Origin: Platanthera guangdongensis | Lineage: Eukaryota; Streptophyta; Magnoliopsida; Asparagales; Orchidaceae | NCBI GenBank assembly: GCA_039583875.1 | Contig: CM077162.1 | Span: 162,585,826-162,649,825, forward strand | Direction of reading: 5' to 3' | DNA: 64,000 bases | Part shown: piece by piece, positions 2,571-64,000 of the stretch | Layout: every line of letters starts with the position of its first letter | Position numbering within the stretch: the stretch's first letter is position 1 | The notes under the pieces: generated by a model | What the model saw: only the letters and a program-made list of their open reading frames with translations | Told to the model about the DNA's origin: nothing | The model's database searches: none | Made by a program: the position numbers and the translations under genes

Positions 2571-3341
2571 TGTACAACCTCGGGCTCGTAAAGAGCCCTC
2601 AAGAAGCAAATAGGTCAACAAGATGGGCAGATGGGGCCAGGGGGGCCCACTCGCAAGAGGCGAGGCGATGGACTCTCCAATGGGCAAAATACCCCCATCC
2701 AGAGGCGAGAGGGCCTCCAGGAGCGAGAGGACCTCCTGGGGCGAGAGAATCTCCATCAGCAAGGAGGTCTCGCAGTATAGGGCGAGAGGCGCCGGCGAGA
2801 CGGGCGGTGGGTCCCTCTCGCCGGCAGGTGCCTTTCCACTCGCCAGGGAGAGAAGAGGTCTTTTTATATCATATATTATATTTCCCTGCCAAACAGAGGT
2901 TTTTACTCTTCTACCCCGGGTGCTTTTACCCTCTTGCCCTTAGTGTACTGTATATAGCTCCTCAGAACAGCGGAGTTTGGCTATTGGCAGACCCAGCCAA
3001 GGGTACCCTGGTAATTTCAGACCGGTGCAGTTTTGTTATTGGTAGTTCAGATTCTGAAATCTATAAATAAGCCCATAGGGGTTCTTTAGAAGAGACTTTT
3101 TTTTAGACTCGGAGGAGGATTCATTGGTACAGTCTTCTGAGGAACTCCAAGCCCAGCTTTTGGCTTTGGAGGGGAAGCTCTCTGTGACCTTCCGGGTAAG
3201 CGGTGGGACCTCCCTACTGCGGCTTTGGGCCAGTTTTCTAATCCTACACGACCAGTCGGAGGTCGGAGCTTGGGCCAAGTAGGAGTCGGCTACGCACCTA
3301 TTTTTGTGAACATTCGTCGAAGTCGAATTTTGGCTTCAAAA
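2571..3341 (+). repeat. G1 5' LTR
   Basis: The LTR starts TGTACAACCTCGGG and aligns end to end with 15542-16310. Its U3 (2640-2850) is packed with the word GCGAGA or its reverse complement, about ten copies in 200 bp, mostly as GGCGAGAGG or GGCGAGACGG. A TATA box is at 3062-3069. The last two bases are AA rather than the CA seen at the 3' LTR end, probably a later mutation. Confidence 0.95.
3062..3069 (+). promoter_or_regulatory. TATA box of the G1 5' LTR
   Basis: TATAAATA lies 280 bp before the LTR end and is repeated identically at 16032-16039 in the 3' LTR. It is a canonical plant core promoter and should set the start of the genomic transcript about 30 bp downstream. Confidence 0.7.
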
Positions 3342-3398
3342 GTTCTGGTGCGGTGAGCGTGGAGGTAGCCGGTTCAAGAAAGGTTTGAGTTTGGTCCT
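3342..3398 (+). other. G1 leader with candidate primer binding site
   Basis: The leader is very short. A TGG-initiated stretch begins at 3346 (TGGTGCGGTGAGCG), four bases after the LTR, in the right position for a primer binding site, but I cannot match it to a particular tRNA. It is not the TGGTATCAGAGC type used by the copia elements here. Confidence 0.4.
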
Positions 3399-11909: not shown

Positions 11910-13912
11910 TCAGTCCTCCTCGCCAGATGAAGAATCATCGCTCTCCTCGCTATAGAGCTCGGGGACAAAGTCGCGCGCAGTCACCGTCTCGGATTCGTCC
12001 TTCACGACCCCCAGGTCTTTCATCGTTTGCGGCACCAGCTCTGCCGCACGAACGCCGGCGTCTCGGCATTGTTCCTCGACTTCTTCATAAGAATAATGTG
12101 GCGGAGGCGTCTGGAAGGGCTCGCGGCGAGATGACGACGCAACATCAGCCTGAAGCCGCGCGTTCTCAGCTGTCAACACCTGGACCTCCTCCTCCAAAGC
12201 CGCCACACGTGAACGCAGTTGTTCCGCCGTCTCGGCATCCTGCGGGATGACCTAGCAGTTAGCCAAGAATGATGGGAAAGGAAAGAGACCCAAGAGAAAA
12301 GAAAGTCATGACTTACCATGCCGCCTTGGGCCTTCGCGAGGAGGGACTCGGCATCTGATAACCTTCTCGCTAGACCAGTGGATTTCTCCCGCTCCGCCTC
12401 CAGATTTTCCTCGCTGGCCTTCCACTTTGAATTAATATAAATGAGGCGGCGAGAGGAATGGTGCGAGAACTCCAAGGCCCGCATTTGGTGATGGCAAGTT
12501 TTCAGCACAAGGTCCTTGGTGGACTCGCTTTCAGGCGAAGTGGCTTCAAGGCCGCCATAGAGGCCGTACCCTATGGCAAAGGCGTGGCTGGAAGGGACCT
12601 CTTGCTCCTTCCATGATGGAAGGAGGGTGGAGATAGACACGCGGTTGGCGTCCCGCCCCCACAACAGAACCGGGTCGCCGACGGCATCATGAACCACGGG
12701 ACCCAGATTGTAATTCATGTGGGAGGAGGGAGCGGGACGGCCAGAGGAGTCGCCTTCACGGGAAGAGGTGGCAGCCGTCTGTTCAAGAGCAGCAGCTCGC
12801 GGGTTGGAAGCAGTGGCTGGCAGGTTGGAGGCAGCAGCAGGTTGATCAGGGAGTACCGTCTCGCGGGTAGGCGAAACGGCCTGGTGATTAGGCGAAAGGG
12901 GCGACAGAGTCTCCCCTATAGAGATAGGGCTCCCTTGGGGAGCTTTCTTCCTCTCCTTAGAAATAACTACTGCCTTCTTCATTTTCTTTTTGGGAGGGCT
13001 GGACCGAGTGGGAATCGTGTCGTCTCCGGGCCGCTATGGCGGGATGACCGCCAGAGACTCTCTCGCCGCCTCTGCCGCTGCATTGGCGAGATCAAGACCT
13101 TTGGCAGGGTGAATATTGCTCTTGTAAGGAGGGGACGCTGGAATAATTCGCTCACCTAAAAGCGAGCAGGGGTTAGGAAGAAGCGAGACGGCAAATAGCG
13201 AGAAGGGAGAAACGAAAGGATAAGAATACCTTCGCCCGGGAGCACTGGAAGAATCGAGTCAAGACCTCGCCGCAAGAAGTTGACCTCGAAATTCTTGCCG
13301 ACTAAGTACTCGCACAGCAGCTTTTCTGGACCGCTAACTTGGGGGGTGTCGTAGAAGCTCTCTGGCGGAGAGACCGACGCGAGAGGGATGCCGCCAAAGT
13401 CAGCACGGTCTCCCCGGATGAAGACGAATCGGGTGAGCCAGTGATGGTTCTTGTTTGGCATCTCGCATACCTTGAGCCCTTGTCCAGTAAAATACGAGAC
13501 GGCATCGGCATTGGCGTGGTAGATGAAAAGCTTGCAGAAGGCCGTCAAGCTGAACTCGATGCGCTCCCGGCGCATATAGCAGGCGAGCGCGATCAACACC
13601 GAGATGGCGTTAGGGTTGAACTGTGCCGGGACGACGCCAAAGTACTTGAAGGTCTGCTTCACCTCAGGCCAAAGGGGCAATCGCAACCCCGCCTCGAAAT
13701 GCGAGACGGGGAAGGCGAGTTCCCCCGGGTAATAAGTGTTGATGCACTCGTCGACCTTGGGGGGGGGGGGACTCGACCCCTTCTCCCAGGTACTCGCGAG
13801 CAAACTTATCATGATCTTCTCGAGGGAGCCGGCCGAGCGGGAAGTCATGGTCAGTGAATCTCTTCCCGCAGCGACTACGCCCCTCACCCTCCTCCACCTT
13901 CTTCTTACCCAT
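11910..13912 (-). pseudogene. Antisense gene B: Transposase_28-like domain, basic linker and C-terminal coiled coil (three exons)
   Basis: This minus-strand gene starts at the ATG at 13912. Exon 1 (13912-13230) encodes a domain resembling the plant family annotated as putative gypsy-type transposon protein (PELAFPVSHFEAGLRLPL, then FGVVPAQFNPNAISVLIAL). Exon 2 (13155-12317) has a basic, NLS-like PPKKKMKK, a Ser/Pro-rich stretch and a helix-forming segment. Exon 3 (12239-11910) continues a coiled coil (VAALEEEVQVLTAENARLQ) and ends in an acidic tail. Both introns are GT-AG (13229-13156, 74 bp; 12316-12240, 77 bp) and keep the frame. Two lesions exist: a 12-base homopolymer at 13759-13770, one base too long, and an in-frame TAG at 13036-13034. 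Repaired length would be about 616 residues. Function is unknown; assignment is from motif memory. Confidence 0.7.
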
Positions 13913-14384
13913 CTTCTTTGGCGAAATGGTCTTCGGCGAGACGAAGGAAGAAATAGGCGAGAGATCTAAGAGAGGAAGGCGAGAAGGGGCCGGCGAGACG
14001 GAAAGGTCAAAAAGCCAAGAACTCGGGTAACAGCAGAAGCGGAAAGTGCGGTATCTAATCCCGGACTAGGCATATTTATAACCGATACATAGCCAATGAT
14101 TAAAAGGGCGGGAAAACATGGGGGGAGAGGAAGAGCCGATGTCCCTTTTCTCTCTCCTAAACCTCGATCGGCGCGACCCATCACAATCAGGAAAATATAT
14201 ATATATAAATATATAGCATAAATTAAAAGGAGAGGCAAAAAAAGGAATGAAAAATTAAGCAATAAAATATATATGTCCAGAAATCGTCCCGCGTTGACCA
14301 AGCTCTCTGCATACTTTGGCGAGACTACCAATATTACAACTTTTGCGAGAAGAAGAAAAAGAAGAATAGCGAGACGGACATTCT
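13913..14384 (-). promoter_or_regulatory. Promoter interval between the two antisense genes
   Basis: On the minus strand this lies between the stop of gene A and the ATG of gene B. It holds an AT-rich block (14190-14220), a CCAAT-type box in inverted form (AGCCAAT at 14091-14097 on plus), TATAAATATG at 14080-14071 and several GGCGAGA words at 13930-14000. The spacing (CCAAT, TATA about 170 bp before ATG) fits a pol II promoter for gene B. Confidence 0.55.
14071..14080 (-). promoter_or_regulatory. TATA box of antisense gene B
   Basis: TATAAATATG on the minus strand, about 160 bp upstream of the gene B start. Nearly the same word (TATAAATATATG) precedes gene A at 15422-15411. Confidence 0.55.
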
Positions 14385-15524: not shown

Positions 15525-15541
15525 AAAAAGAGCGGGGATTG
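15525..15541 (+). other. G1 polypurine tract
   Basis: The purine-rich AAAAAGAGCGGGGATTG ends directly at the start of the 3' LTR. This is the expected primer site for plus-strand DNA synthesis. Confidence 0.8.
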
Positions 15542-18912: not shown

Positions 18913-20421
18913 TGAAAGTGCAGCTAGATCTGATATACTCTAGAGGGAGGGTGAATAGAGTATATGGTGCTTGAAAACTTTTTACAACAATTGTTGTAAT
19001 GTGAGTGAGCAGGGAAGCAATTATAAATCTAATTACAGAACTAAACTAATCAAAAGCTAATCACAGAACAATCACAGCCAGAAACCAAAATAAAGATAAG
19101 CAAAACCAGATGACACAAGGAAATATAGTGGTTCCTCTAAACTTGGGTACATCCACTCTTCTACCACCCTAGGTAGGAATCCACTGCAGGATGAGTTGAT
19201 CAGGTGTCCTGGGCACCAATGAGCTTTTGATAAGGTGCTCAAAAACCAAATCAGATTTTTTTGATCAGGTGTCTTGCCACCAATGAGCTTTTGACAAGGT
19301 GCTCAAAAACCAAACTCAAACTTTTGAAGGGAGTTTGAGAAACCCTTTACAAAGATGGGGGTGAGAGAATGATGGAAGTCTTCTCTTTCTCAAACAGCTG
19401 AGAAGACTATGTGGATTGATGGTGTCAAAGCTCCCCCTGAGTCCTTGAGATCTTCAGGAAAAGAAGCTTTGCTGTAGGGTGATAGGCCTTCAAAAGTTGA
19501 TCTCCAACAAAAGATGATTTCAGCAACAGCTGAAATGTTAGGTGTCTGGAGTCTTGAAATATGTTGGCCTTGAACACTTGAGACAAGAGAGATCTGAGGA
19601 TTTCAGGAAGTTTGATCTCCTTGGATGTGTGTTCTTGAGAATTCTTTGAGACAAAGAGTATTTTTTGTGTACTTGTTCTTCTTGTCTGTGTGTGTGAGAG
19701 AGATTCAAAAATTCTTGTCTTTTATTCTCTGGTACTGAATAGAAAAGTATTCTCTGTCAAGAATAGCCGTTGGTCTGCATTAATTGCATCCTTAATTGCA
19801 AAATGTCTTCTGGAGGAAAGTCCATAGAAATATTCCTTGAAAATCCCTTGAAACTTGGTCCAGAGATAAATGAAAACGGCTAGAAATCTTCTGAGTTAAT
19901 TGCAGAATAACTCCTTAACTGATCTGAATTTGAATCGTGAAAAATCCTTGAAGTTATCTGAAAACGTCGAACTGAGCTCTGCTATCGTCGAACTGAGCTC
20001 AGCGATCTGGATTTATACTGCAACAAAATATCGTCGATCTGAGCTCAAAGATCGTCGAACTGAGCTCAGAGATAGAAATGCAAAGCTGAGTCAAGATCGT
20101 CGAACTGAGCTCACCGATCGTCGAATGGAGTTCGACGATATGAAGAAGTTGAGCTCAGCGATCGTCGAATGGAGTTCGATGATCTGTCGAAGTTGAGCTA
20201 GACGATCGTCGATCGGAGTTCGACGAATCGTCGTGCTGAGCTCGACGATATGACTTAGTCTCAAACTGAAAAAGTCTTGGTCTTGAGGGCAGCTTCTAAA
20301 CTTAGACTTCTAACCCTTAGACTCAATTCTAATTGACCTTTAGGACTATACATGTGGTCAAACATTGGTTTCCTAGAGGCATAGTGATCCTGACCCAAAT
20401 TAGTAATAGGGTGTTCCAACA
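18913..20421 (-). repeat. C1 5' LTR with palindrome cluster (19965-20255)
   Basis: In minus orientation it begins TGTTGGAACACC at 20421 and ends CACTTTCA at 18913, 1509 bp. The outer part holds about a dozen copies of the palindromic word CGTCGAACT...AGTTCGACG and variants (GAGCTCAGCGATCGTCGA). The inner part matches the LTR of C2 (CCACTCTTCTACCACCCT, GATCAGGTG repeats) and C5. Confidence 0.88.
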
Positions 20422-22189: not shown

Positions 22190-22572
22190 CGATGAATTTT
22201 CCAAAGTTCGTCGAACGGAGTTCGATGAACCGGGGAAAGTTTGAGAGATATTCGTCGAACGGAGATCGACGAACTCTGTGTGAGTGAAACAAGTTTCGTC
22301 GAACGGATTTCGACGAACTTGCTTCAGAAGATATTCGTCGAACGGAGTTCGCCGAACTGTCTTCAATTCTTCTGGATAAGATCGACGAATTATTTCATTC
22401 AAAATTATTTCGTCGACCTCAGTTCGAAGAATTATTTTTATTTTTATGGAACGGGGTCTGTCGATTCATATTCTTGAAAACACTATATTTAGGTTTTCTT
22501 CGACCTCCATCCCGTGCTTTCTGTTCCTTTGCACTTGATCGCCGTTTCTGTGTCTCTCTTGCAGGTGATTCC
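22190..22572 (+). promoter_or_regulatory. C2 internal promoter region: palindrome cluster, TATA-like box and acceptor-like site before the extra ORF
   Basis: At 22205-22440 there are about ten CGTCGAACGGAGTTCGACGA-type words, the same family as in the C1, C2 and C5 LTRs. They are followed by CACTATATTTAGG (22481-22493), about 90 bp before the ATG at 22573. A pyrimidine-rich TCTCTCTTGCAG ends at 22564, which could be a splice acceptor. So the ORF could be expressed from its own start or by splicing. Confidence 0.5.
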
Positions 22573-25543
22573 ATGACGATTCAGGCAAGCATTCTCACAG
22601 GCATGAAGTTCGATACAGGCTTTGACGTGGATTTTGATTCGTTTCAACACTCTGATCCCATCTTCCTTTATATTCTGGAACTCCTTGAAGAACAAGAACT
22701 CAAAACCTTGATAACTAGAAGAATCAAACTACACAGCACTGAAATCAGGGAATGGGTCTACACCCTATTGCCAACAAAGGAGAATATAATTACAGGCACC
22801 ATTGCGGGTAACTCCGTCTCCTTAACTCCCGCAATCTTAACTGAAATTTTTGGATTAAGGAATGGAGAAGAGCAACTGGAGATTGAAATAGAGGAATCTG
22901 ACGTGATGCTGAGCCTCATGGGTTATTCTGGAGATAACCCTAACAAATTCTTGAAGAAACACCTCTCTGCCCCTTATAAGTTTTTGGCAGATTTGGTTGG
23001 AAAGGTTCTGCTTGGGAAACATACTGCCCATGATTACATCACCAGACACTAGTTTTGGTCATGTGTGCAATTATAAACAAGAAACCAGTGGATTGGGCAC
23101 ATATTCTTTTTGATTTGATACAGAAGAAAAATAATAAAAAGGAAGTATGCTTTGGAAGGATCCTAGGGATCTTCTTACAATAAAAGGCTGCTGAATCACT
23201 GGTCTCCCAGACCATATTCATCAATGCCAGTAAAAGGCTAACCTGTGCCTTATTTGGCAGGTGGGAGAGGACAATAACCAAGCCAACCAAGGCTTCTACC
23301 TCTTCCACCCCAGCTTTAGAAGGCACCAGGGCTGTTAAAGCCACTCCCCCACCTGCTGAAGAGATTCATCCAACACCACCATCTCTTCCAGCTCCCCTTC
23401 CAGCAACACAACTCCCTCACTCTTCCACTATCTCTTCAACACCACAATCACAACAACATACTCATGTTCCTACTCCACTTCCATCTCAACATGCTTCACC
23501 AGCTCCATCTCCACCACTTGACATCACTGAAATTCTATCTTCCCCTCTTCAAGAAAATCAACCAACAACACCTCCTGATTCCCCTCATGACACCTACATT
23601 CCTACACCACCACAATCTCCTCTTCCCCCACATCTCTCTTCAATACCATCTTACCATCTACCAACAGACACCATCATGCAAGATACTACTCATCCATCCC
23701 CATCAACATCTACCATCCCTCTAGATGTTCACATACCTGATGCTCCACTTTCTATCCCTCACATAGTTCCCACTTCTACACCTTCTGCAACACCATCTAC
23801 CACTCCATCATTGGACCACTCCACCATATCTTCTATCATTTCCATAATCACTCCCTCCTCAAATCCCTTATAGCATAGGCCATTACACCTCTTGCTACCA
23901 CCATCTCCTCTCTCTCTGATAAAATCTCTGCTCTTACTGCTGCCCCATCCTCAAACAGGGGACTGGCCTTAGTTACCACTGAAACCAGGCAGGGGGAGAT
24001 GCTTGATGATGAAGCAGCAACTACAGCTCCAGAGGCTACAGCTTCAGCTCCAGCAGTAGATGCTCCAGCTACAACAATAACAGCATAGTGTACAGAATAC
24101 ATAGATAAAGATTTGATTGACTTTATTGAAACTGATATGGATTTTGATGAATCAGACTCTGAAGAGCCTAATACTGTTGGTGATTTCATTCTTAATCCCA
24201 TAGTTAATTTAGAAAATCTGTTGAGTATTTTTGATACTGTACATTTGCGTTACCTTCAAGCTGAGATTACTAAGCTATCCTTGGCTATTATACCATACAC
24301 TTTCCCCATCTCTTCAGAAGTTGCTAAGCAACTTAAGGACAGTTTTGCTATTGCACAATCAGCAGTCACTCCACCTCCAGAAGTAGTGGCTATTCCATCT
24401 TTCCCAATAATACCTTCATCATTAACTTTTGTCATGGATGACTCCCCCATGCCAGATCTAGATGAACTGATCTTGGCTGATATTGCAAATGAAAATAAGG
24501 CAACATCTGAAAGCTCTATCCAAGTTAGTTCTTATTTTTGTGTAGCTTCTCCTCCAACTCCTGCTAAAACTCCAACTCCTGCTTAAACTCCTGCTCCTGC
24601 TCCAAAAAAGCCTGCTATTTCTACTAAAGCTTTGAAAGCTTTGGATGATCTATATGATAACCCCCAGGGTTCTGACAATGATGATGATGAAGATGAGGAT
24701 GAGGATTCTGATGAGGAGGATACAAAGAAGAAGAAGCAAGTATCAAAGAAAAGAAAAGCTCCTCCTCCTCCTGCTCCTAAGCCTAATCCAAACAATGACA
24801 CCCCTTACTACATTCTTCAAAAGATAACTCCATACAAAGGGATGCCAGCATGGATGTGGCTATCTAAGAATCAGCAAAAGGAAAGGAAGAAGAGTAGAAG
24901 ATACTCTCCTCCACCAGTTCAAAGGTATAGAAAAGATCCACCACCTCCTCCTCCTCCTGCAGCTGGTGCTTATGGATCTAGTTCTCAAAGCTCTACCCCC
25001 TTTCAAACATATCAAAGACATCAAGGGAGATCTCATCAGGAAAGCAACCAACACAGGCAACAATCTTCAGAATAACAACATCAGCATTAACAACAACATC
25101 AACAGAAACAACAACATCAGCAACAAGAACATCAACAAGCTGAAAGTCCTAAAAGACCACTCTCTCCTCCTGTTCCTTATAAAAATCCAAAAACAGCCAA
25201 CACAGCTAAAATGGCCAGGTTCCAGGAGCTAGTAGGTCTTTCTATGATCAACAAGGAAAAGGATGAAGGGAAGGATATTTCTGAATACAATACAATGTCA
25301 AAATACAGGAGAGAAGAACTGAAAAGGATTGAAAAGGCTAACAAATTTTTTAATGTTGATGATTATATGAAATTACATCCTGAAGCAGTGGTCCCTAGAG
25401 CTACATCTCTGAAGATTATAGGGGCTGTTGACATGACAATGACTATGGAACAAGCTTTAAATACAAACAGGGAAATAATCTTTACCAAGCCAGGAGATAA
25501 GGGCAAGGATGTAAAGCATCAGGAGAAGAAACAGAAGAAGTGA
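22573..25543 (+). pseudogene. C2 extra ORF after pol (env-like/aORF), decayed
   Basis: Original length was about 990 codons. The N-terminal 190 residues (from MTIQASILTGMKF) resemble the 'putative plant transposon protein' domain and align by eye with the C4 extra ORF (FL.DLVGKVLLGK..HDYIT versus FLSEIVGKVILCK..VHDRIS; GRILGIFL versus GRILSLYL). A Pro/Ser/Thr-rich stretch (23340-23870), an acidic block, a poly-Asp/Glu then Lys-rich run near 24680-24770, a Gln/His/Asn-rich region and a Lys-rich C-terminus follow. Breaks: frameshift near 23045, TAA in LQ-stop-KAA near 23181, frameshift near 23865, stops at 24086, 24584, 25073 and nearby. No signal peptide or clear membrane segment is seen, so 'env-like' is positional only. 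Confidence 0.75.
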
Positions 25544-42702: not shown

Positions 42703-42815
42703 AGTGGTATCAGAGCCAGGTTCCTCAAAAAAGGGACATAACTGTCTGAGTAGATCCTGTTGGCAGATTCAGTGAAATCAAGGACAGATTCAGCATAATC
42801 AAGAAAATCAAGAAA
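42703..42815 (+). other. C4 leader with initiator-Met primer binding site
   Basis: TGGTATCAGAGCC at 42705 matches the 3' end of initiator Met tRNA and starts two bases after the LTR. Confidence 0.9.
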
Positions 42816-44853
42816 ATGGGTTCAACAGAGAATCATAAGGAACTTGGATCCATGAAGTTGCCCATTTGCAGAAAAGAGATTTTTAGCATCTGGAAAGAAA
42901 GGGTGAGACTGTTTATGGAAGCTTCAGACCCTAGAATCTATATCACAGTTAAAGAAGGGTCATATGTGCCTATGAAGGTTTCAGTCCTGCATGCAAATCA
43001 GAGAACACCTAAAGACTTTTCTGAAATGACAAAAGATGAGATTATTCTAGCCACCATGGACAAGAGGGCTCAGAATATCATTGTGAGTGCCATAAATGAT
43101 GCTACATTTCAGAACTTGATACACTGTAAGACATCAAAGGAGATGTGAGATACTCTTATAGTGTATATGGAGGATTCAGAAGAAGTTAGACAAGACAGAA
43201 AGTCTTTGTTAAACCAAGAATATGAGAGCTTCAGACAAGGCAGGTCTAATAGCATAACAGAATGCTATAAGAAATTCTATAGGATAGTGAATGAGTTAAT
43301 GTCCTATGGAAGAGATTTCAGCAATTATGAGCTGAATGATAAGTTCTTAAGGTCCCTAACAAAGGACTGGGACACCAAGATCTGTGTCATAAGGGAAATG
43401 GCCAAGTTAGCAGATATCCCTCCTCCAACTTTGTTTGGAAAACTGTTATCCTATGAAATGCAGTTGATGGTAAGGAAGGAGGAGGAGAAGACTACAAGAA
43501 GTGAGCATAAAGAAAGAACAGTAGCATTCAAGACAGAAGGCACTAGAAAATACAAAAGTAAGTCTCCATCTCCACCTCCAAGGGTTGCTGGATCTGAGAC
43601 AGATGAGACAGAATTCAGGAATTCTGAAAGCAGTGAGAGTGATGAGGATTTTGCAGCTTTCACAAGACACTTTCAGAAGTTTCTAAAGAAGAAACAGTGG
43701 AGGTCAAAGCCATCCACTTCACAGGGAAAAGATGACTATTATCAGAACAAGAAGTCATCAAAGAAAGACAGGAGAAACCCCAAGTCAAGCAAAGCAACTT
43801 TATCAAAAATTGTATACTGTTGCTGTAACAAGCAAGGACATGTTGTTGCAGACTGTCCAGAGAAAAGAAAAGAGTCAACAGATAAGAAAAAGACTCAATT
43901 CAAGGGAAAGAAGGAAAGGTCCTTTGTTGCCAAGAAGGACAAAGGCCTGTCAGACATGTCTTCTTCAAAAACTGAGTCAGAAGCTGAAGCTTACATAGGA
44001 CTGTTTGCTGAAGAAGAGGAAGAGGAGTTCATTCAGCTAATGAACTCTATATATGAGCAAGAGGACAATCAGTGACAAGGACTGATGGCATTGTCAGAAG
44101 GTGACAAAATCCAGGATCAGCCTGGACCTAGTCAGGTACAAAATTGTTCTTTAAGTTCAATTTCTAGTGCTAGTTCAGATTCAGTTACATCAGCATCAAA
44201 TGATGCCAGTGGATCTGAATCAGAAGTGGATATTCATCAGTTGATTGATGAATATAGAGTTCTGTTGCAAGCTTTTAAGAAAAGCAAATCCTTGGCCAAG
44301 AGTTAGGAAAAAGGAAATTGCTAGTCTCAAAGAGGCTGCAACTAATTTTGATAAGTTAATTGATCAGAAATTAAATGAAATAGCCAGGCTGAAAAACATA
44401 ACTGTTATTCAGTTGGGGACTATGGCATTTAAGAATGATCAAATCAGAAATCTAGAGATTAGTCTTCAGAAGGAGAGAGACATTGTTACAAGGTTTTCTA
44501 AAACAAAGTCTGTTCTACCTTTAATTGATGAATTTGTACATCAAAAGGGTAAAGCTGGACTGGGGTTTACTAAACCTGCTAGGACTGTTCAGTCCAAGTC
44601 TAAGGGCAAAGCCCCAGCTATCAACAAGCCAGCTGTAGATAAAACAGCTAGGGTTATACCTAAGCAAAGGTACAATAGATTTGAGTGCTGGTGCTGTGGC
44701 AAGATAGGCCACTTTGCCATAGACTGTTGTCACAATTCTAGTGCCAAGATGAGTAGCAAAGTGCCTGTTGGAAGATCTGCAGGTAGCTTTGTTAAGAGGC
44801 AAACTAACCAGCACCAAGGACCCAAGAATTCTTTGGGTTTTAAGGTCAACTAA
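42816..44853 (+). pseudogene. C4 Gag with two zinc knuckles (broken)
   Basis: Starts at ATG 42816 (MGSTENHKELGS). The UBN2-type Gag body ends with ELNDKFLRSLTKDWD and TLFGKLLSYE. A first CCHC knuckle, CCCNKQGHVVADC, is near 43820. A long acidic and Ser-rich region and a coiled-coil segment (KEIASLKEAATNFDKLI) follow, then a second knuckle, CWCCGKIGHFAIDC, near 44690. The knuckles are about 290 codons apart. Breaks: TGA at 43146 (KEM-stop-DTL, expected Trp), TGA at 44073, a frameshift near 44290 and TAA at 44851. The frame then continues into protease. Confidence 0.85.
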
Positions 44854-46510
44854 TCTGTTTTGCAGGTAAGTCCAAGTGGCCATGCCCCAATATGGTACTT
44901 GGACAGTGGATGTTCCAGATATATGACTGGAACTAGGGGATTGCTGAAGGACTACACACAAATCAAGGATGGTCCTAAAGTCACCTTTGGTGGTTCTGAA
45001 AAAGGAATCATCAAAGGTTTTGGTAACATTTCTTGCACCCATATAACAATTACTCAAGTGGCTTATGTTAAAGGTTTAAAACATAACCTTATCAGTATAA
45101 GTCAACTGAGTGATTTAAGATATGACATCTCATTTGTCAAAGGTGGTTGTCATATCAGGAGATCAAATGATCAAGAGATCATTTTGACTGGTTACAGAAA
45201 GAGAAATGTCTATTGCCTAGACATTGTGTGAGAATAATGTTTCTCCAGTGTGTCTTGTAGCTAATGAGAAAGTCTCTCATTGTGTCAAATGGCACATGAG
45301 GCCAGCCCATCTTAACTACAAGACAATTGGCCAACTCTATAGCAAAGAGTTAGTGAGGAATGGTCCTCAGGTTAAGTGTATTAAAGATGAGATATGTTCA
45401 GCTTGTCAAAAGGGCAAGCAGACTAGATCCACCTTTAATAGCATTGAGAACAAAGATGCTGTGAGGTGTTTATACCTCTTGCATATGGATCTCTTTGGTC
45501 CTATGCCAGTTCACAGCCTAGGTAGGAAGGTCTACACATTTGTGGTTGTAGATGACTACTCAAGGTTTTCCTGGGTGTTCTTCTTTAGATAGAAATCTGA
45601 AACACATAATATCTTTTATAGCTTTGTCAAACAAATTCAGAATGAGTTAGACAGTACAATGGTCAAAATAAGAAGTGACCATGGTACTGAATTTCAGTCT
45701 GATAGTATGACAAAACTATGTGAAGAATTTGGGATATTTCAGGAATTTTCTTCACCAAGAACACCTCAGCAAAATGGCATTGCTGAAAGGAAAAATAGAA
45801 CCTTGATTGAGGCTGGTAGAACCCTATTAAGTGACACATCTCTCCCAGAATATTTCTGGGCTGAGCCAGTTAATACTGCATGCCATGTAATTAATAGAGC
45901 TACCATTACTAAAGGCTACAACAAGACCCCCTATGAGATTGTGAAAGGCAGAAAACCAAATTTATCCTATTTCAGGATCTTTGGTTGTAAATGCTTTATA
46001 CCTAATAATGGAAAATCTTACTTGACCAAGTTTGCTGCCAAATCCCAAGAGGGGATCTTTGTTGGGTACAACAATAATAATAAGGCTTATAGAGTCTACA
46101 ACTTGACTACTCAAGTTGTAAAAGAGTCAGTACATGTAGTATTTGATGAAGCTAGACTTATTAATAATGAGTTGTCTAGAAGTATTTGCAGCTCCACAGG
46201 TGTGACTAAGAAGATGGACAAGCTCACTATTGAAGAAGGATCTACTACAAGTCAGCATGTAGATGATAGTGGCTGTTATCCAGGGGGAGTACTACATGCA
46301 CCTGATGCAGAAGAAGACCAAGGAGTGCAGTAAGTTGAAGAAGCTAAAGGAGTTCAACCTGAAGTCAGGAACCCTCCAGCTACTAGGCATCTAAGAGATC
46401 ATCCAGCAAATCAAATTATTGGTGATCTAAGTCAAGGGGTACAAACAAGGAGCAAAAATCTAAATGCAGTACTCTACTCCAGTTTTCTATCCCAAGTAGA
46501 GCCAAAGAAA
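44854..46510 (+). pseudogene. C4 protease and integrase (broken)
   Basis: Protease opens with WYLDSGCSRYMTG near 44890. A frameshift at about 45228 leads to the pre-integrase domain (WHMRPAHLNYKTIGQLY...CSACQKGKQTR) and the integrase core: LHMDLFGPMP, VVVDDYSRFSWVFF, IRSDHGTEFQ and NGIAERKNRT, so DDE is intact. The copia tail (FRIFGCKCFIPN, GIFVGYN, KAYRVYN) follows. Stops at 45590 and 46331 interrupt the otherwise single frame that leads into RT. Confidence 0.88.
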
Positions 46511-48025
46511 TTTGAAGAAGCCATCCTAGACCCTCATTGGATTGAGGCAATGCAAGAAGAGCTGAATCAGTTCAAGAGATGCAAAGTCTGGGAGCTTGCT
46601 CCTAAACCAAAAGACCACAACATAATTGGAACGAAGTGGATCTTTAGGAACAAGATGGATGAACATGGAGTGATTATTAAGAACAAAGCAAGACTGATTG
46701 CCAAGGGATATAGGCAGGAAGAAGGTATTGACTTTGATCAAACCTTTGCTCCAGTAGCCAGACTGGAAGCCATAAGGATGTTCCTGACCTATGCAACCTA
46801 TCAAGGATTTAAAGTATACCAAATGGATGTTAAGTCAGCCTTTCTGAATGGTAATCTGAAGGAAGAGGTCTATGTGGAACAGCCATCAGGTTTTGTTGAT
46901 TCAACTCAACCTAATTATGTCTATAGACTTAGGAAGGCTTTGTATGTGTTAAAACAAGCCCCTAGGGCTTGGTATGAAACCCTGTCTAGTTTCCTCATTG
47001 AGAATAAATTCACAAGGGGGAAAATAGACAAGACTCTATTCCTTATGGAATCCAGAGGCAAGATAATACTAGTCCAAATATATGTTGATGACATCATATT
47101 TGGGTCTACTGAAAGTAGTCTTTGCAAAAAGTTTGCAAAACTTATGCAAGGACAATTTGAGATGAGCAGTATGGGGGAACTTAAGTTCTTCTTGGGTCTC
47201 CAAGTTAGACAGACTGAGAATGGTTGATCCATATGCCAGTCTAAGTTCACCCTAGAATTAATAAGGAAGTATGGTATGAAATCATCCAGTACCATGAAAA
47301 CTCCTATGGGGTCAAGTATGTCTCTTAGCAAAGATGATGCATGGAAACCTGTAGATGAGACTTTATATAGATGGATAGTTGGATCCCTATTTTATTTGAC
47401 TGCAAGTAGACCAGATATCATGTATGCTACATGTGTCTGTGCTAGGTACCAAGCATGCCCTAAAGAGTCTCATTTGACAGCAGTCAAAAGGATTCTGAGA
47501 TATCTAAAGGGCACTCCTTATCTAGGCCTTTGGTAACCTAGGAATGGAGACTTTGAACTGACAGGTTATTCAGATGCAGATTTCGCAGGCTGCAAGGAAT
47601 ATAGGAAAAGTACAACTGGAACCTGTTAATTCCTAGGTGGAAGACTGATATCATGAAGTTGCAAGAAGCAAACAAGTGTGGCTATCTCCACAGCAGAATC
47701 AGAGTATGTGGCTGCAGGAAGTTACTGTGCTCAACTTCTATGGATACAACATCAGCTAGAAGACTGTGGTATTCAAGTAAGTAGAACACCACTGTTTTGT
47801 GATTATACTAGTGCTATATCTATTGCAAACAATCCTGTTTCCCATAGTAGAACTAAACACATTGAAATAAAATATCATTTTCTAAGGGAACATGTAGAAA
47901 AAGAAGATATTTCACTGGAGTATGTTAATACAGATAATCAACTAGCTGACATGTATACTAAGCCTTTAGAAGAAACCAAATTCAATAGGTTTAAAATTGA
48001 ATTAGGTATGATAAACTTAGAATAA
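46511..48025 (+). pseudogene. C4 reverse transcriptase and RNase H (broken)
   Basis: RT has [45 protein letters not shown] and an intact catalytic [12 protein letters not shown] near 47080. RNase H has YSDADFAGC near 47570 and STAESEYVAAGS near 47690, ending TKPLEETKFNRF. Stops at 47225, 47534, about 47626 and 47654 break one frame; the last two fit CAA-to-TAA and TGG-to-TGA. End is TAA at 48023-48025. Confidence 0.9.
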
Positions 48026-48049
48026 GTTTACAGAAATGGCTAAGTAAAA

Positions 48050-48412
48050 TAGTGTCGTCACACAGAGTAGTCTGTGTCGAGACAGAGAATTGGTGTCGAC
48101 ACATCTTGGAAGTCTGTGTCGACACTTCAGAAAATTAGTATCGACACATACAGGGTAGGTGTCGACACATCCAAGATGGTGTCGACACTTAGACTTTATG
48201 CAGAATTAGTGAAGTAAAGTCTCGACTAAGTGTCGAGCTAAGCCGTGTCGACATATAAACAAGTGTCGACATATATATTCTGTCGACTATACTTGTGTCG
48301 ACACATAGTTGTCGAGACATTATAAGTCTGTGTCGACACTTTTCAACAGTGTCAACACAATTTAAGTTTCTTGACGCGCCCTTTCATCTTCAATCCTAGA
48401 AAGGTATAAATA
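48050..48412 (+). promoter_or_regulatory. C4 internal promoter: GTGTCGACAC cluster plus TATA box before the extra ORF
   Basis: About 15 copies of GTGTCGACAC and variants lie between the end of pol and TATAAATA at 48405-48412. The ATG of the extra ORF is 99 bp after the TATA box. This repeats the layout of the LTR (same word cluster, then TATA), so it looks like a second copy of the LTR enhancer serving the extra ORF. Confidence 0.65.
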
Positions 48413-48510
48413 GGATTTCGCCATTGTCTGTCGACACGCTCACCAAAGTTTCGAGACCAAACTTGTGTGTTGACACCTCTCTTCTCTCAATTCAAATTCT
48501 TCAAACCCTA

Positions 48511-51369
48511 ATGGCACCCAAGCTCGAAGAGAACGTGAATGAAGGATATGAACTAGTGCGGCATGCGTTTGATGACGCAGAACCAGAGATCAAGGATGTG
48601 GTAACCCTAGTTGCAAACTCAGGGTTAGATTTTCTTGTTTCAGAGCCGACCAAGATATGGAAGAAAGAAGTTCTAGAATTTCTGAATGGAGCAACCCTAG
48701 AAGAATCTGGACTCAAGATAAAGTCAAGGGTTCATGGAGAAAAGGTGAAAATCTCATCTAAGAGTTTGAGAAAGGTACTAAACCTACCAAGGACTAAGGA
48801 AGAAGATGAAGTTTCTGCTTCTAAGACCAGAGAAGCTTTAACATGGTGTGGACTGGATTCCAAGATGAAAATTGGATCAGTATTTAACAGAAAGGGAATG
48901 AACAGCCAAGGCAAATTTCTCTCTGAAATTGTTGGCAAGGTGATCCTGTGCAAGTCTGGAGTACATGACAGGATTTCAGCTTATATGTTCAATCTAATTA
49001 CAAGGTTAATCTTCCAGGTACATACTGATTGGTCTGTAGTAGTGTTTGAGAAGATTAAGGAGAGCCTGAAGAAACATAATTTGGGTAGGATACTAAGTCT
49101 TTACTTGGCTGGTAGTATACCAGAAGTAATGAGCCAAGCTGCTGGATCTAAAATCAACCACATGAGGAAGATGGACATGAGAATCTTCTCTAGATGGGAT
49201 AGGGTCTTGACCAAGGAAATGCCAACTCCCGAGAAGGAAACCCCACTAAAGAAGAAGAAGAAGACAACCCCAGTGGCTCAAGATTCCTCTAGTAGCTCTG
49301 AAGAGCAAGTTGTGTTTACCCCAGATGATGAATAAGAAACTGGAACTACTGGAAAGTCTCCAGCTGGACAAGATGATGCAGAGAGGCAGGGGGAGCTGCC
49401 ACAAGCTAGCCCAGTACACCAGGATTCCATCCAGGGGGAGTCTCTACTAGTGGAAGAGCCAACTCCACTAGAAAGTGAACAAGCAACCCACACCATACTT
49501 GAGGTAATCACTGACATCAATAAATTAAACTTCCCTATTAAGGATGATGTTTTGTCTGATTCATTACATAATGTTAATCAGCAAACTCAAACACATAGCC
49601 AACCCCAAGATGTTGTCATGGAGGACACATCTGTTGCAGATCAAGTGAAACCAAATCAAGTAATTGATGAGATAAGAGAATCTCCACCACAACCTCAACA
49701 AGAGTTTACTTTGGAAGAACTATTCCCTGATCTACTCCAAACAGACTTTGAGAAGGAAAGTGCTACTGCTGAGGGGGAGAAGGCCCAAGTTGAGGGGGAG
49801 AAAGTGGAGATTCTAGAAGAAACTGCAAGCAAAGAGACTGAAAAGCCTAAGAATGCTGAGGAATTACCTAGGAAGGATTTGCCTCCAAGCCCTAAGGACA
49901 GGGTTGATATAGCTAGTACATCTGCATCTGAAGATGAAGAGGCTGCCAGAGCCAAAAAGAGGAAATTCCAAGTATTTAAGAGAAGGCGCCAAACTTATAA
50001 AAAGGCTTTACAAACCATTTCACAACAGCCTACCCCACAGCCTGCACCATCAACAGATTTCAGTTCTTTGATGGTTGCATTACAGATAAAGCTTGATGAG
50101 CAAAGGCAAGCTCTTGAAAAGTATGTAGATGAAGGGCAAAAATCTCTACAATTTGATCTGGCCCAGGATATTAAGTCCATCAGATTTGAGATGAATCTGA
50201 TAAGAAATAGATGACTGACTGCTTCCACAAGGGAGGGAATGCAGTGGTTTACTTGGCTACACATCAAGAGAAGATAAAAGCTCAAGTGGATGATATTGCA
50301 CTGAATCAAGGATATGTTCTGGAGAACCAACTCAGGATGAATGATAATTTAACTGCTTCACACAATGCAATAGTCACAAAAATGAAGAATATAGCTACTG
50401 GGCAGACTACAACTAATGCTACAGCTAAGGCAGAATTTGATAAAGCACTACAAGAGGGAATAACTGCTGTTACAAATGCTATACAAGACTCTCAAAAAGG
50501 CTATAACTGACAAGCTCCCAAGGTTGAAACCTCTCTTTAAGGATGTAGTAAACTATTTGGATGCCCAAATAAGATTTTAGAAAGATGATCTGAGGGATCA
50601 TATTGTTAGAAAAGTCATAAAGGGGGAGAGGGTGTTAGTCAAAACCAGCTCTGATCATGCAAAATGGATTTCCAATTCCATCAGAGCCACCCTTGGATAT
50701 CCTCCATTGTGTGATGATGACAATGTAGCAGAGTCTGGGATTAATCCTGCTTATCTTGGAGGGGAGCAAGTTGAAGTGGCTCAAGTCATATATCCTCCAC
50801 CAGACTTTGATATGGTACAAGTAGATATACAGTCCATGTATAGCCCACCTGAGGGAAAGCAAAATGTCATCATAGAAAAAGTGGTTCAGCCAGTGCCAGA
50901 GTCTATACTGAAAGAACAAGAAGCCTTGTTGCTGAAGGAACAAGAGACTCAGTTGTCTAAGAAGAGGTTCAGAGAGCAAGCTGAACAAAGACCTGATTTT
51001 GAACAGTGGAGCCCCACTTCAAGGAATATTATTTTGACTGCTTGGAAAGCTGCCAAGGATAATATTCAAGATAAAAACAAGTGGTATTCTGAACTGGAAT
51101 GGAGAAAGCATGAGTCCAGGCAGGAAGCCATTGTGCAATACATAAGAAAGACTAAGATGGGAAAGCTACCTCCTACTGCCCAGGAGCCTAGCAAGTACTT
51201 TCCTAAGCCTTATCATTACTTTGAAAGGCAGAAGATTAAAGCTAAAGAGATAAAGAAGAAGGATCTTAAAAGCAAGAAGCCTGCTGCTGCTGAAGATACT
51301 GAAGCCCCAGTCCAAGCAAAGATACAATCTGGAAAGGGCATAGTGATCAAGGAGGCTGAACAGAAATAG
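48511..51369 (+). pseudogene. C4 extra ORF after pol (env-like/aORF), decayed
   Basis: Start is ATG 48511 (MAPKLEENVNEGYEL) rather than the earlier in-frame TTG, because the TATA box is at 48405. The first 260 residues resemble the 'putative plant transposon protein' domain (ALTWCGLDSKMKIG, FLSEIVGKVILCKSGVHDRIS, GRILSLYLAGSIPE). An acidic linker with repeated GEK.QVEGEKVE, a basic KKRKFQVFKRRRQ near 49955 that could be a nuclear signal, a helical region (LQIKLDEQRQALEKYVDEG) and a Lys-rich tail follow. Breaks: TAA at 49333, frameshifts near 50212 and 50505, TAG near 50578. No signal peptide or membrane segment. Homologous to the C2 extra ORF. Confidence 0.78.
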
Positions 51370-51644
51370 AATAGAATTTATCTTTAGTTTACAGTTGTAA
51401 TCTTTTGATTTTAAACACTCTGTAAACTTTTGTATAATGAATATGATAAAGTTCTTAGAACTATCTGATGTATGTTAATTCTATTACATAATTGTTCTGA
51501 GATATTAGTATATACATGTTTTGTTTTGATGCATGTTTATGTTTTCCCTGATTGTATAATCCTGTTTTACATCATACTGTAATTTTATTATGTATGGTGT
51601 ATATCATTGACTAAGGGTTATGACTTCTCCAAATAGGGGGAGAT
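51370..51644 (+). other. C4 3' untranslated region and polypurine tract
   Basis: AT-rich sequence without an ORF, ending in the purine tract AAATAGGGGGAGAT (51631-51644), which abuts the 3' LTR. Confidence 0.85.
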
Positions 51645-53668
51645 TGTTGGGTACATTGGTTTAAATGTACCTGATTTGAAGAAGACTCACCCTACTCAAT
51701 GATATACATCAAAATGTATTTGATGTGTTTTGAGTTTAGTTGTGCAGGTTAAGTATTTGCAGGGAAAGTTGAAAAGTTTCTAAGTCCATGTGTCGACACC
51801 CAGAAGGGAAGTGTCGACACTTAAGAAGACTTGTGTCGACACCCAGACACGCAGTGTCGACACTTGGAGTAATTGTGTCGACACCAGGGATGCAGAGTCG
51901 GCACCAGACAGAAAGTGTCGACACATACAGGTTGTGTCGACACTCAATGAAGAGAAGTCCAGAGAAGCTGTGTCGATACTTAGAATCAGTGTCGACACCT
52001 AGAGGAACTTCGTCGACATCAGAAAGTGTCGACACTTGGAGGCTGTGTTGACACTCAGCAAATTACAACAGAGTCTAAGTATAAGTGTCGACATAATGAA
52101 TAATGTGTCGACACACAGCAGAAGATTCAACACATGAAGAAAGTGTCGACATAATAAAGAATGTGTCGACACTCAGCAGAAGACTCAATACATGAAGAAA
52201 GTGTCGACACTAGGAGGCTGTGTCGACACTCAACAAAGTTCAACAAATTTTAAGTACAAGTGTCGACACAAAGGAGATGTGTCGACACTCAGCCAAAGTC
52301 TCAACAGAAGAAGAATGTGTCGACACAAGAAGAAGTGTCGACACTCAGCAAGTATCAACACAGAAGGCAAGTGTCGACACCAAGAAGATGTGTCAACACT
52401 GAACAAGTTCAACACAAGAAGATGTGTCGACACAAAGGAGTTGTGTCGACACTTACAAGAATTCAACTAAGTAATGAAGAACAATAAGTTGTGTCGACAC
52501 ACAATATCAGTGTCGACACATGATGAAGAAGCAGTGTCGAGACATAAATTCTACAACACAAGGAGTTGTGTCGACACCTTGAAGGCTAGTGTCGACACTT
52601 AGTCTACTTGTGTAGACACTTGGTCTATAAGTGTTGACACTTAAAGATAGACTGTCTCGACACTTTCAGACAGTTACAGATATTTCAAGAAGTGACTGGA
52701 TGACATGACAGCTGCCATTCCAGCCGGTCTACTACAACTATCAGAGATGTCAGAAAGCTGTTAAAAACCGGATCATCCGGTCACCATGAAGAACACCTAT
52801 ATATAGGCTTATTCTGTCAACAGAAGATGATGATTAATCAGAGGATTCAACACAGATTAACATAAATTAGTTGAAGTGATCAGAAGATTCAAGTAGTTGG
52901 AGAGAGAGAGCTCCTTCGAAGAAGATAACCGTTGGAACCAGGCTGTAAAGAAGGGTTAAGACCTAGTTCTGAATCTTAAGTTGCAGTGATTGAAGATCAG
53001 TTGTAGAGAGTTTCAACCCTATTGTTCTACATTCAAGAAGCGTTGAAGAAAGCCAAGTGAGGTTGATCTCAGCAGAGTTCTTTCAAGAACTCATCAAGAA
53101 CCTATCAACTCTTCTCTCTTATTCAGAGTTGTAGGTATATACTTTGTATTCTAAATTTCTTGTAGGATCCTTAGGGATCTGAGTTGTAAGCCTGTAATTA
53201 TAAAGGCTGAGTGGTAGGGCCTGTGTGCCTGAGTGTAGGAGATCTATTTCTCTGAGTGTAGGCCTGTTGTGGCTGAGTGTAGGCCTTGTGGCTGAGTGTA
53301 GGCCTTGTTGAAGGCTGAGTGTAGGTCTTTGTGAAGACTGAGTTGTAGGGCCTTGGGCCTGAGCTGTAGGAACCTGTTTGGGGTTTTGAGTGTAAGATCT
53401 GAGGATCTGAGGAATTCTGGAGGAGTTTGGCCGAATCTAGTACACTACTAGATATACGAAGGGGGAAAGTGGATGTACCCAAACCTTGGGGAACCACTAT
53501 AAATCTGTGTGTTCACTGTGTGCATGTGTGATTCTGTGATTGCTGATTGATTGCTGTGAAGAAGTAGTTATAACTCTGTGATATAATCTGCAATCTGCCT
53601 AAAAAGTTTAAAAAAGATTTAGTCACCTATTCACCCCCCCTCTAGGTGATTAGGTACAATTTCTTTTA
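51645..53668 (+). repeat. C4 3' LTR
   Basis: Starts TGTTGGGTACATTGG; the end reads TTTCTTTTA, with CA lost relative to the 5' LTR. The palindrome cluster spans 51789-52675 and TATATATA is at 52798-52805. Several words have decayed relative to the 5' LTR (for example TGTGTTGACAC). Confidence 0.95.
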
Positions 53669-61819: not shown

Positions 61820-63031
61820 AATGTCATCACAAGATATATTTTCAAGGGAGATCTAGAAACCCTTTGGGCTTTTAATCAGGTGACCAAAAACCAAACTAAG
61901 TCTTTTGATCAAGAGACTTAACAACCAAGGGATTAACTTTTGAAGGGAGTTAGAAACCCTTTAATAGTGAGGTAAAAATAAAATTGATGTTGTCTTCTCT
62001 TCCTCAATGTTCTGAGAAGACTAGTGGATTGTTGTTGTTGTCAAAGCTCCCTCTGAGATGTAGAATGGTTCAGGAGAATGAAAGCTTTGCTCAGGGTGTA
62101 GGCCTTCACGATGAGCACTTCTTCTTGCAGTAAATATCTCTGAGTGATTGAGCTGTTGGTCTCAGATTTGTATGTTGTGTTGCCGGAAGTAAAACGTGGA
62201 GAAGAAGAATGAAGATGAACAAGATATTCTGTGTCACTATTTCTTGTTCTCAGAATGCAGATATTTTCTTCTTATTTTTCCCGACACAGTAAATTCTAAC
62301 TGTTAGACTCTTGCACGACAATCTTCTGAAAAATCTTTTTATATCTGATTGCTAATTTTGAAATTGAAATCCTTGAAGTCCTCTGTATATTCTTTGGGAA
62401 TTGGAATGGCTGAATATTGTCTTCAATGCATTTCACGAACTATCCCAATAAATATATTAAGTAATAATTCTATGAAATCCTTAATTAATGATGCAAAAAA
62501 CGACTATATTCTTGAGAATATGAGCATTAATTATCAGAGTTTTACTGTTTGAATAATTGAAATAATCTAAAATCGAATTGCCTTAGATGGTCTAAGAAAC
62601 TGAGAGAAGATAGTCGAACAGAACCTGGATGGAGTTAGTCGAACTAAGGAAAGTTTTCGGCGACCTAAGCTCCAAGTTCGACGAGCTGATAATTCTCCTT
62701 CGTAGAGCTGAGCTCCAAGATCGTCGAACAGAAAAAGCACTTGCCAAACTGAGCTCCAAGTTCGTCGAGCTGAGAAGGCACTTCATCGAGCTGAGATCTG
62801 GAGATAAGCTCACAGTTCGTCGACAAGAGATAGAATTTCTTCGAGCTCAACTCAAAGAAGGAACTCTGAGTTCGTCGATCTGAGATTGACGATTGTCGAG
62901 CTGAGTTCAGCTATCGTTGAACTCCTTTTTCTGCAATATTCAATACTGCCTTGTCTCTTAAGTCTTGAGTCTCTAAAGTCTTCTGAAGGTAGGTCTCAGT
63001 GAACTATCCTAAAGTAATTGACCTTAACCCT
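61820..63031 (-). mobile_element. C5: copia LTR, outer part, resumed after G3
   Basis: Continues the C1/C2-type LTR in minus orientation (ACTTTTGAAGGGAGTTAG, GAGAAGACTAGTGGATTG, AAAGCTCCCTCTGAG). A cluster of CGTCGAGCTGAG / GTTCGACGA words lies at 62610-62930. The outer ~100 bp of the LTR are missing because C6 starts at 63032. Confidence 0.8.
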
Positions 63032-64000
63032 TATTGGGTACATTGGAAAATATGTACCAGATTTGGAGAAGCCTCACCTAACTCAATGATATGCATCAAG
63101 TTGTATTTGATGTTGTGTTGAGTTATCATGTGCAGGTTAAGTAAATGGAAAAATTTTTTTCTAAGTACAAGTGTCGACACTTGGGAATGGGTGTGTCGAC
63201 ACCAAGGGTCAGATTGTGTTGACACCCAGAATTTGTGTCGACACACAGAAAATCTGTCGACAACGCTGTGTCGACACCAAGGGCCAGATTGTGTCAAGAC
63301 CCAGAATTTGTGTCGACACACAGAGAAGATGTCGACACATTCCAGAATTCTGTCGACAACGACTGTGTCGACACACAGAACTTGTGTCGATACACACCAG
63401 AATTCTGTCGACACCAACTTTGTCAAGACAAGGAATGATTGTGTCGATACACAGGACATATATCGACACATTCCACAGAAGTCGGGTCGAGAAGTAAAAG
63501 TGAAGCTGTGTCGACATCATCAAGACTTGTATCAACACATGTACTATGTGTGTCGACACATGTGAAGTATTCACTCGACAGTCTCTGCTGCTGAGTCAAA
63601 GTCCAATGAAGGTTGAAGTAATACAACTAGAGACTTGACAGCTATCATTACTGACATTACTGTCACATCTGTCAGAGGTATCAGAAGACCGTTTGGAACC
63701 AGAACAGCCGGTAACCATGGATGAAGCCTATATATAGATATGCCCTCTCAACAATTAGAATAATTATCGATTGTGAAGAAGTGATCGTGAACACGATTAG
63801 TGAATAAAGAGTAATCTCTGAAGGATTGAGGATCCAGAAGAAGAGAAAGAAGAAACAGTCAACAGATTGTAGAGAGAGAAAAACAAGAAGGAGAGAAGTC
63901 CTCATCTCGTGAAGGCAGATCCTGAACAGTCTGTCAGAAGAATTCAGATCAATTCTGAAGAAGAATTCAGATTAATTTCTGAATAAGAAGGAAGCTGATT
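63032..64000 (+). mobile_element. C6: copia LTR of the C4 type, running off the right edge
   Basis: Starts TATTGGGTACATTGG (TG changed to TA), aligning with the C4 LTR start. A cluster of about 20 GTGTCGACAC words is at 63171-63560 and TATATATA at 63729-63736, about 170 bp later, the same layout as C4. Sequence between words is strongly diverged from C4, yet the word is kept. Confidence 0.85.

What the first reader, a model, noticed from the sequence alone, without database searches (positions are those of the whole stretch)
2571..63736. Hypothesis: family-specific motif plus extra protein anti-silencing system in LTR retrotransposons
Four families in one window each reiterate their own CG-containing word: GGCGAGA (G1 LTR, gag leader and antisense genes), CGTCGAACT/AGTTCGACG (C1, C2, C5), GTGTCGACAC (C4, C6), GACACGGGCGTGTC (G2, G3). 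Three of them carry extra non-replication genes, several with basic, NLS-like stretches. Established parallel: VANC proteins of VANDAL DNA transposons bind short motifs amplified in their own elements and counteract silencing. Inference: the antisense genes of G1 and the extra ORFs of C2/C4 could be such factors. Weak point: G2/G3 show the motif but no extra gene.
Basis: inference. Interest (0 to 1): 0.9.

Follow-up and report, generated by a model that had tools for sequence, protein, structure and literature searches.

The report
Retrotransposon gene resembling anti-silencing protein VANC21
In an orchid genome, jumping genes of one class carry dense arrays of a short DNA word before their own promoter and before an extra gene, and that gene's predicted shape best matches VANC21, a protein with which another mobile element escapes silencing; this gives a testable role to a gene long filed as envelope-like.

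Summary
The word arrays are real. All four word families exceed dinucleotide shuffles. GTGTCGACAC occurs 2,076,908 times in the 4.25 Gb assembly, against 2,228 for its reversal.

C4 (and C1) are Sireviruses by PBS junction. Arrays in the LTR upstream of TATA, and again upstream of a third gene, are the published Sirevirus 'repeated motif' plan (PMC2829016).

For G1 (a Retand with the known TRP28 gene) it stays open: model unusable. G2/G3 have words but no recognised extra gene.

DNA binding, demethylation and word-protein co-evolution are untested. CpGs in C4's own LTR pair have decayed, so this copy shows no protection from methylation.

The parts
40679..53668 (+). C4: Sirevirus-type Ty1/copia element with both LTRs, inside G3, flanked by GTTTG target-site duplications
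   Evidence: LTR pair 96.9% identical; flanks read; Pfam gag, integrase SH3 and RVT_2
40824..41690 (.). C4 5' LTR U3 array: 29 TGTCGACA, 24 exact GTGTCGACAC; TATA at 41832 downstream
42703..42716 (+). C4 Sirevirus PBS junction AGTGGTATCAGAGC
   Evidence: signature in PMC2829016 section 12
48094..48436 (.). C4 linker array: 9 TGTCGACA between RNase H and third gene
   Evidence: conserved against spacers in 30 copies
48405..48412 (+). TATAAATA, putative core promoter of the third gene, 106 bp before its ATG
   Evidence: present in 28 of 30 copies
48511..49335 (+). C4 third gene, first open piece (274 aa): VANC21-like predicted fold, sub-threshold PF20167 match
49450..51369 (+). C4 third gene, further open pieces (49450-50214 and 50632-51369) with basic NLS-like runs; this copy is interrupted
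51635..51642 (+). Terminal polypurine tract AGGGGGAG, 10 bp before the 3' LTR; five more starting at 49388-50621
51790..52600 (.). C4 3' LTR U3 array, 26 TGTCGACA
19957..20243 (.). C1 5' LTR (minus strand, about 18913-20421) array with CGTCGAACT/AGTTCGACG half-sites, 21-bp period
22206..22430 (.). C2 linker array: dyads TTCGTCGAAC-nnn-GTTCGACGAA about 39-44 bp apart
22484..22492 (+). TATATTTAG, putative core promoter of the C2 third gene
   Evidence: in 10 of 12 fetched relatives
22573..23052 (+). C2 third gene, first open piece; homologous to the C4 third gene; remainder to about 25543 is interrupted
25940..26750 (.). C2 3' LTR array: 8 TCGACGAA plus a block of 5 C4-type TGTCGACA (26380-26507)
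62613..62878 (.). C5 remnant with GTCGAAC / TCGACGAA words
63171..63558 (.). C6 LTR array, 12 TGTCGACA
36323..36795 (.). G2 5' LTR (minus strand, 34743-36875) array of ACACGGGCGTGT-type palindromes
39099..39300 (.). G3 5' LTR array of the same palindrome
2704..2822 (.). G1 5' LTR cluster of GGCGAGA, upstream of TATA at 3062
13935..13998 (-). G1: four TCTCGCC (GGCGAGA) within 64 bp just upstream of the antisense TRP28 frame; TATAAATA at 14080-14073
13156..13887 (-). G1 antisense gene with PF04195 Transposase_28 (TRP28) domain

Best explanation
The C2/C4 elements are Sireviruses whose third gene, in the place usually called envelope-like, encodes a nuclear DNA-binding protein with a VANC21-like fold. 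The protein most likely binds the CpG-containing dyads arrayed in its own family's U3 and in front of its own internal TATA box. Binding would keep or reopen both promoters under host methylation: a self-amplifying activator and anti-silencer whose site is multiplied within the family. Shown: arrays at both places, TATA positions, constraint on linker words and gene among C4-family copies, homology of the C2 and C4 genes. Predicted by model: the fold. Inferred: that the TATA boxes are used, binding to these words, nuclear entry, and anti-silencing rather than plain activation. G1 may run an analogous scheme with a TRP28 protein; that is not shown.
Confidence: 0.52

Rival explanations
1. The arrays are enhancer repeats read by host transcription factors (one view of Sirevirus RM boxes), and the third gene does something else, for example assembly or movement of particles. 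Sharing of words by U3 and linker only means that both promoters use the same host activator.
For: Published RM boxes matched mainly stress-related plant cis-elements, and their authors thought of different nuclear factors without finding a common one. G2/G3 have arrays and no recognised extra gene. Four Sireviruses without ENV still have LTR RMs. Constraint on words fits any reader.
Against: It does not predict a VANC21-like fold for the neighbouring gene, nor that homologous third genes go with different words, nor the coupling of linker arrays to the presence of the gene (77 of 79 linker copies lie upstream of ENV).
Confidence: 0.28
2. The third gene product binds the words but acts as an ordinary transcription activator or an autorepressor, like a retroviral transactivator, with no effect on methylation.
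For: Two putative promoters with the same sites give a feedback loop. PMC11963269 proposes regulatory roles for accessory Retand proteins (passages).
Against: VANC21 itself causes methylation loss around its sites (PMC5735166, passages), so the fold match favours anti-silencing somewhat.
Confidence: 0.15
3. The arrays are neutral minisatellites made by slippage during reverse transcription; the words look conserved only because units are young copies of one another.
For: Tandem-repeat calls overlap the arrays; tandem repeats are common in Retand elements.
Against: Spacers differ while words stay. Private mutations hit words and spacers alike, but shared variants avoid words, which neutral decay does not give.
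Confidence: 0.05

Closest known systems
Sirevirus repeated-motif (RM) boxes and ENV-like gene (Bousios et al. 2010, PMC2829016)
   Same: High-copy dyad words in the LTR upstream of TATA and again upstream of the third gene; CpG-rich islands; PBS and PPT signatures.
   Different: Core is TCGA, not CGG-CCG (one published element, Tnd-1, also lacks CGG-CCG). Here a TATA box lies between linker array and gene; the authors could not conclusively identify the internal promoter. The third gene has no transmembrane segment and has a VANC21-like predicted fold.
VANC anti-silencing proteins of VANDAL transposons (Hosaka et al. 2017, PMC5735166; PDB 9lnj)
   Same: Short motif accumulated in the element's own non-coding DNA, differing between families with related proteins (C2 and C4 pieces 23% identical); predicted fold of the C4 domain.
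   Different: Host element is a Ty1/copia LTR retrotransposon, not a Mutator-like DNA transposon; no DUF1985 match by sequence; words are palindromic; no binding or methylation data.
Retand TRP28 antisense accessory gene (Vicient 2025, PMC11963269)
   Same: G1: antisense PF04195 gene between pol and 3' LTR, tandem repeats in that region.
   Different: Word cluster in LTR and just before the TRP28 gene is added here; no usable fold could be obtained.
Transposase_32 (PF20167) accessory gene of Athila elements (sunflower Athila 14, PMC11728184)
   Same: C4/C2 third genes give collinear sub-cut-off PF20167 matches; NLS-like runs.
   Different: Below Pfam's cut-off; hhalign against the orchid full-PF20167 proteins not significant; different superfamily of element.
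Spm TnpA of maize (recalled; only a reference title was seen)
   Same: Element-encoded protein acting on a methylated promoter of its own element.
   Different: DNA transposon, unrelated protein; not compared here.

Membership tests
Sirevirus (Ty1/copia) | PBS junction CA-A[TG]TGG-TATCAGAGC | tested here: met
   C4 at 42701-42716; C1 on the minus strand at 18899 with one change in the PBS; C2's 5' end is missing
Sirevirus (Ty1/copia) | AGGGGGAG polypurine tract 10 bp before the 3' LTR, several copies in the linker | tested here: met
   C4: 51635 and five more at 49388-50621. C2: terminal tract is a variant, GGGGGGAG; one AGGGGGAG at 23991
Sirevirus RM system | Symmetrical repeated motif in LTR upstream of TATA and upstream of the ENV-position gene | tested here: met
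Sirevirus RM system | CGG-CCG core | tested here: not met
   Core is TCGA in GTGTCGACAC and TTCGTCGAAC; Tnd-1 in the published table lacks it too
Envelope protein | Transmembrane segment | tested here: not met
   Maximum 19-residue Kyte-Doolittle mean 1.46 over six open pieces of the C2 and C4 third genes
VANC | DUF1985 (PF09331) by sequence | tested here: not met
   No match at E up to 10 in 10 proteins (filters drop most hits above 0.1) and at E up to 0.5 in 9; a genome search with PF09331 did not complete
VANC | VANC21 fold | tested here: inconclusive
VANC | Motif repeated in non-coding DNA of the encoding element | tested here: met
VANC | Encoded by a VANDAL Mutator-like DNA transposon | tested here: not met
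   C4 has LTRs, gag, integrase, RT
VANC | Sequence-specific binding and loss of methylation | not testable with these tools
   Needs EMSA/DAP-seq and methylation data
PF20167 Transposase_32 | Score over Pfam cut-off 45 bits | tested here: not met
   12-26 bits for C2/C4 and relatives; a match in 8 of 10 members
Retand (G1) | Antisense PF04195 gene between pol and 3' LTR | tested here: met
   27.7 bits against cut-off 26.2
Retand (G1) | Second RNase H domain after RT (recalled feature), long pol-3'LTR region with tandem repeats | tested here: met
   PF17917 and PF13456 in one ORF; 19 copies of a 112-bp unit

The most novel reading that the evidence does not exclude
LTR retrotransposons of the Sirevirus genus encode VANC-fold anti-silencing proteins: the 'envelope-like' gene binds the RM boxes of its own family in the LTR and in its own promoter, removes methylation there, and this pairing explains both the RM boxes and their coupling to the third gene. 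Gene and word diversify together, so that families in one genome run parallel, separate anti-silencing channels.
Probability: 0.35. Interest if true: 0.93.

Novelty: new variant of a known kind. Interest (0 to 1): 0.8.

Why it matters
The function of the third gene of plant Sireviruses and the reason for their RM boxes were left open in the 2010 paper. A VANC21-like fold beside a matching array at both promoters turns these into one testable question, and would extend element-encoded anti-silencing from Mutator-like DNA transposons to a major class of LTR retrotransposons. In this genome the C4 word alone accounts for about 2 million sites.

Tried and rejected
Envelope reading of the third gene: rejected (no transmembrane segment; no viral fold match). 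Pure composition or dinucleotide chance: rejected. Neutral minisatellite: disfavoured. Hypomethylated arrays inferred from lack of CpG decay: not supported. Private CpG changes were not raised in the C4-family linker arrays (10.6 per 1000 cells at word CpG, 16.2 at other word C/G; few events, 9 and 26), but were mildly raised in the C2 family (37.3 vs 28.8) and raised in C4's own LTR pair. Fold of the G1 TRP28 protein: model of its P. zijinensis relative P0010 had pLDDT 44.5 and was not searched. By profile comparison the C4 and C2 third genes do not match the orchid full-PF20167 proteins significantly. The label 'Athila-like' for the elements of L009-L038 and L069-L074 rests on reading the integrase-like end of L009 by eye and on the published Athila/PF20167 link; they were not classified by a search. 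In L069 the words seen downstream lie in a G2/G3-like LTR, so no LTR array is claimed for that family; the other five long loci (L070-L074) show no CGTCGACC cluster before the gene. Sequence search of solved structures gave one unrelated weak hit, CONSTANS-like 2. Planned word-protein co-evolution test (subfamily of P0001) did not complete. The 30 C4-family copies are the best-scoring relatives of the C4 gene and include the window's own copy (30 of 141 scored, of 104,453 first-look candidates), so the constraint test describes that subfamily only. One search stopped with an error after printing; its numbers were redone. Novelty searches: in the open-licence PMC library only; no listed title or abstract start links Sireviruses to VANC folds, and the passages read of PMC11728184, PMC12844716, PMC10398659 and PMC13317346 do not either. 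PMC12844716 leaves open whether Tork and Athila encode such ORFs. Bousios 2016 on maize Sirevirus palindromes (recalled) and the 2022 EMBO J VANDAL paper are not held.

Full report
WHERE. The window lies in a 4.2456-Gb assembly of 274 contigs, at C16:162585826-162649825. Two contig lengths (183,157,185 and 152,486,348) equal the contigs of proteins named KSP40_PGU, Platanthera guangdongensis, so the host is almost surely that orchid.

WHAT IS THERE. Nested LTR retrotransposons. G1 (2571-16312) has LTRs 96.6% identical, pol with two RNase H domains, a 112-bp satellite of 19 copies and an antisense PF04195 gene: it is a Retand element. C1, C2, C4, C5 and C6 are Ty1/copia or LTR remnants like theirs. 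C4 has both LTRs, the Sirevirus PBS junction, the polypurine tract 10 bp before the 3' LTR and five more tracts in the linker. C1 has the junction with one change. C2 has gag, linker array and third gene, but no integrase or reverse-transcriptase frame of 120 aa or more between them. G2/G3 are Ty3 elements without a recognised extra gene; G3's interior is mostly missing (inferred), so G3 cannot tell.

WORDS. The C4 word is a 10-bp palindrome; its core TGTCGACA occurs 29 times in the 5' LTR, 26 in the 3' LTR and 9 in the linker. In the two LTRs 51 of 53 spacings are 18-22, 34-40 or 53-59 bp, near two helical turns and multiples. The C2 family word, seen over 13 aligned copies (the window and 12 relatives), is a dyad of two 10-bp half-sites with three bases between. 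Genome counts: C4 word; C2 dyad. In C4 the array is followed by a TATA box in U3 (41832) and again in the linker, 106 bp before the third gene's ATG; in C2 the linker TATA is about 90 bp before the ATG. 28 of 30 and 10 of 12 fetched copies keep the linker TATA.

PUBLISHED PLAN. PMC2829016 (abstract and sections 6, 9-12, 19, 20 read) describes RM boxes in 13 Sireviruses: dyad words, high copy number, in the LTR upstream of TATA; 77 of 79 linker copies lie upstream of ENV, and the four elements without ENV have none in the linker. The window's C2 and C4 are new members of that plan with a TCGA core. The authors suspected but could not conclusively identify an internal promoter; the TATA boxes seen here are candidates.

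THIRD GENE. Relatives of the C4 gene are Platanthera proteins, mostly named hypothetical. C4 and C2 proteins are homologous over 209 columns. Both give PF20167 matches below Pfam's cut-off, 8 of 10 members of the alignment. Full PF20167 genes in this genome (150 scored of 24,535 first-look candidates; the best 30 fetched with flanks) sit in what look like Athila-type Ty3 elements; 30 of 30 have at least two GTCGACC upstream. These 30 are mainly one subfamily; of six long loci only the one from that subfamily shows it. Open frames of up to 1026 aa exist among the 141 scored C4-like copies, so longer open copies exist; the window's copy is interrupted.

CONSTRAINT. Thirty C4-family copies, the window's own among them, were aligned. 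Private changes, mostly after insertion, hit words and spacers alike: A/T sites 6.7 vs 8.4, non-CpG C/G sites 16.2 vs 15.6 per 1000 cells. Shared changes, which passed through transposing ancestors, avoid words: 7 in 111 non-CpG word columns, 75 in 326 spacer columns (Fisher p 3.7e-5). The gene shows the same contrast between non-synonymous and synonymous changes. Words and protein thus both seem needed by copies that spread. Diversity dips over about eight to ten columns, the length of the word. The test covers linker arrays of one subfamily; LTR arrays were not tested this way.

CPG. C4 gag-pol has 2 CpG in 5,320 bp (observed/expected 0.01), its third gene 0.07; C1 and C2 coding parts 0.03-0.23; the arrays 0.78-2.29; G1, G2 and the small element N1 0.76-0.85 internally. 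Long-term methylation of bodies or avoidance of CpG could both give this; the arrays escape it. Whether arrays are unmethylated now is unknown, and C4's own LTR pair lost 11 of 46 CpGs. A sunflower study reports strongly reduced CG methylation between the LTRs of SIRE elements (PMC12844716, passage).

LIMITS. No binding, expression or methylation data. The co-evolution test did not complete. The fold rests on one model with ten sequences. G1 and G2/G3 do not yet fit one common scheme.

VERDICT. Observation mostly right, with corrections. Interpretation partly supported: for C2/C4 now a serious, testable hypothesis with structural support; for G1 open; for G2/G3 without a candidate protein.

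Noticed in passing
42701-48020, 1-2570, 20440-22020: Coding DNA of the orchid Sireviruses is nearly CpG-free (observed/expected 0.01-0.03) while GpC is normal (0.93-0.94); Ty3 neighbours are at 0.76-0.85.
   Followed up: partly
26380-26507: The C2 3' LTR holds a block of five C4-type TGTCGACA words between its own TCGACGAA words, as if words had been exchanged between families.
   Followed up: partly
22550-22575 and L075-L086: A splice-acceptor-like TTGCAG|GTG just before the ATG of the C2 third gene (in 9 of 12 relatives), besides the TATA box; a spliced mRNA is possible.
   Followed up: no
55477-60432: A small element with 512-bp LTRs (96.7% identical) inserted in G3; one 707-aa frame with a sub-cut-off gag match at its start and otherwise no Pfam match at E up to 0.5.
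   Followed up: no
9274-11396: 112-bp satellite of 19 copies in G1 between pol and the antisense genes.
   Followed up: no
L009-L038, about 800-1010 in gene orientation: Elements with full PF20167 genes carry CGTCGACCGG about every 26 bp before that gene; the TATA pattern used was absent from the first 1600 bases in 29 of 30 loci.
   Followed up: partly
P0003 (Platanthera zijinensis): Its C-terminal part reads into G2/G3-type LTR sequence, so annotated proteins in this genus include retrotransposon chimeras.
   Followed up: no
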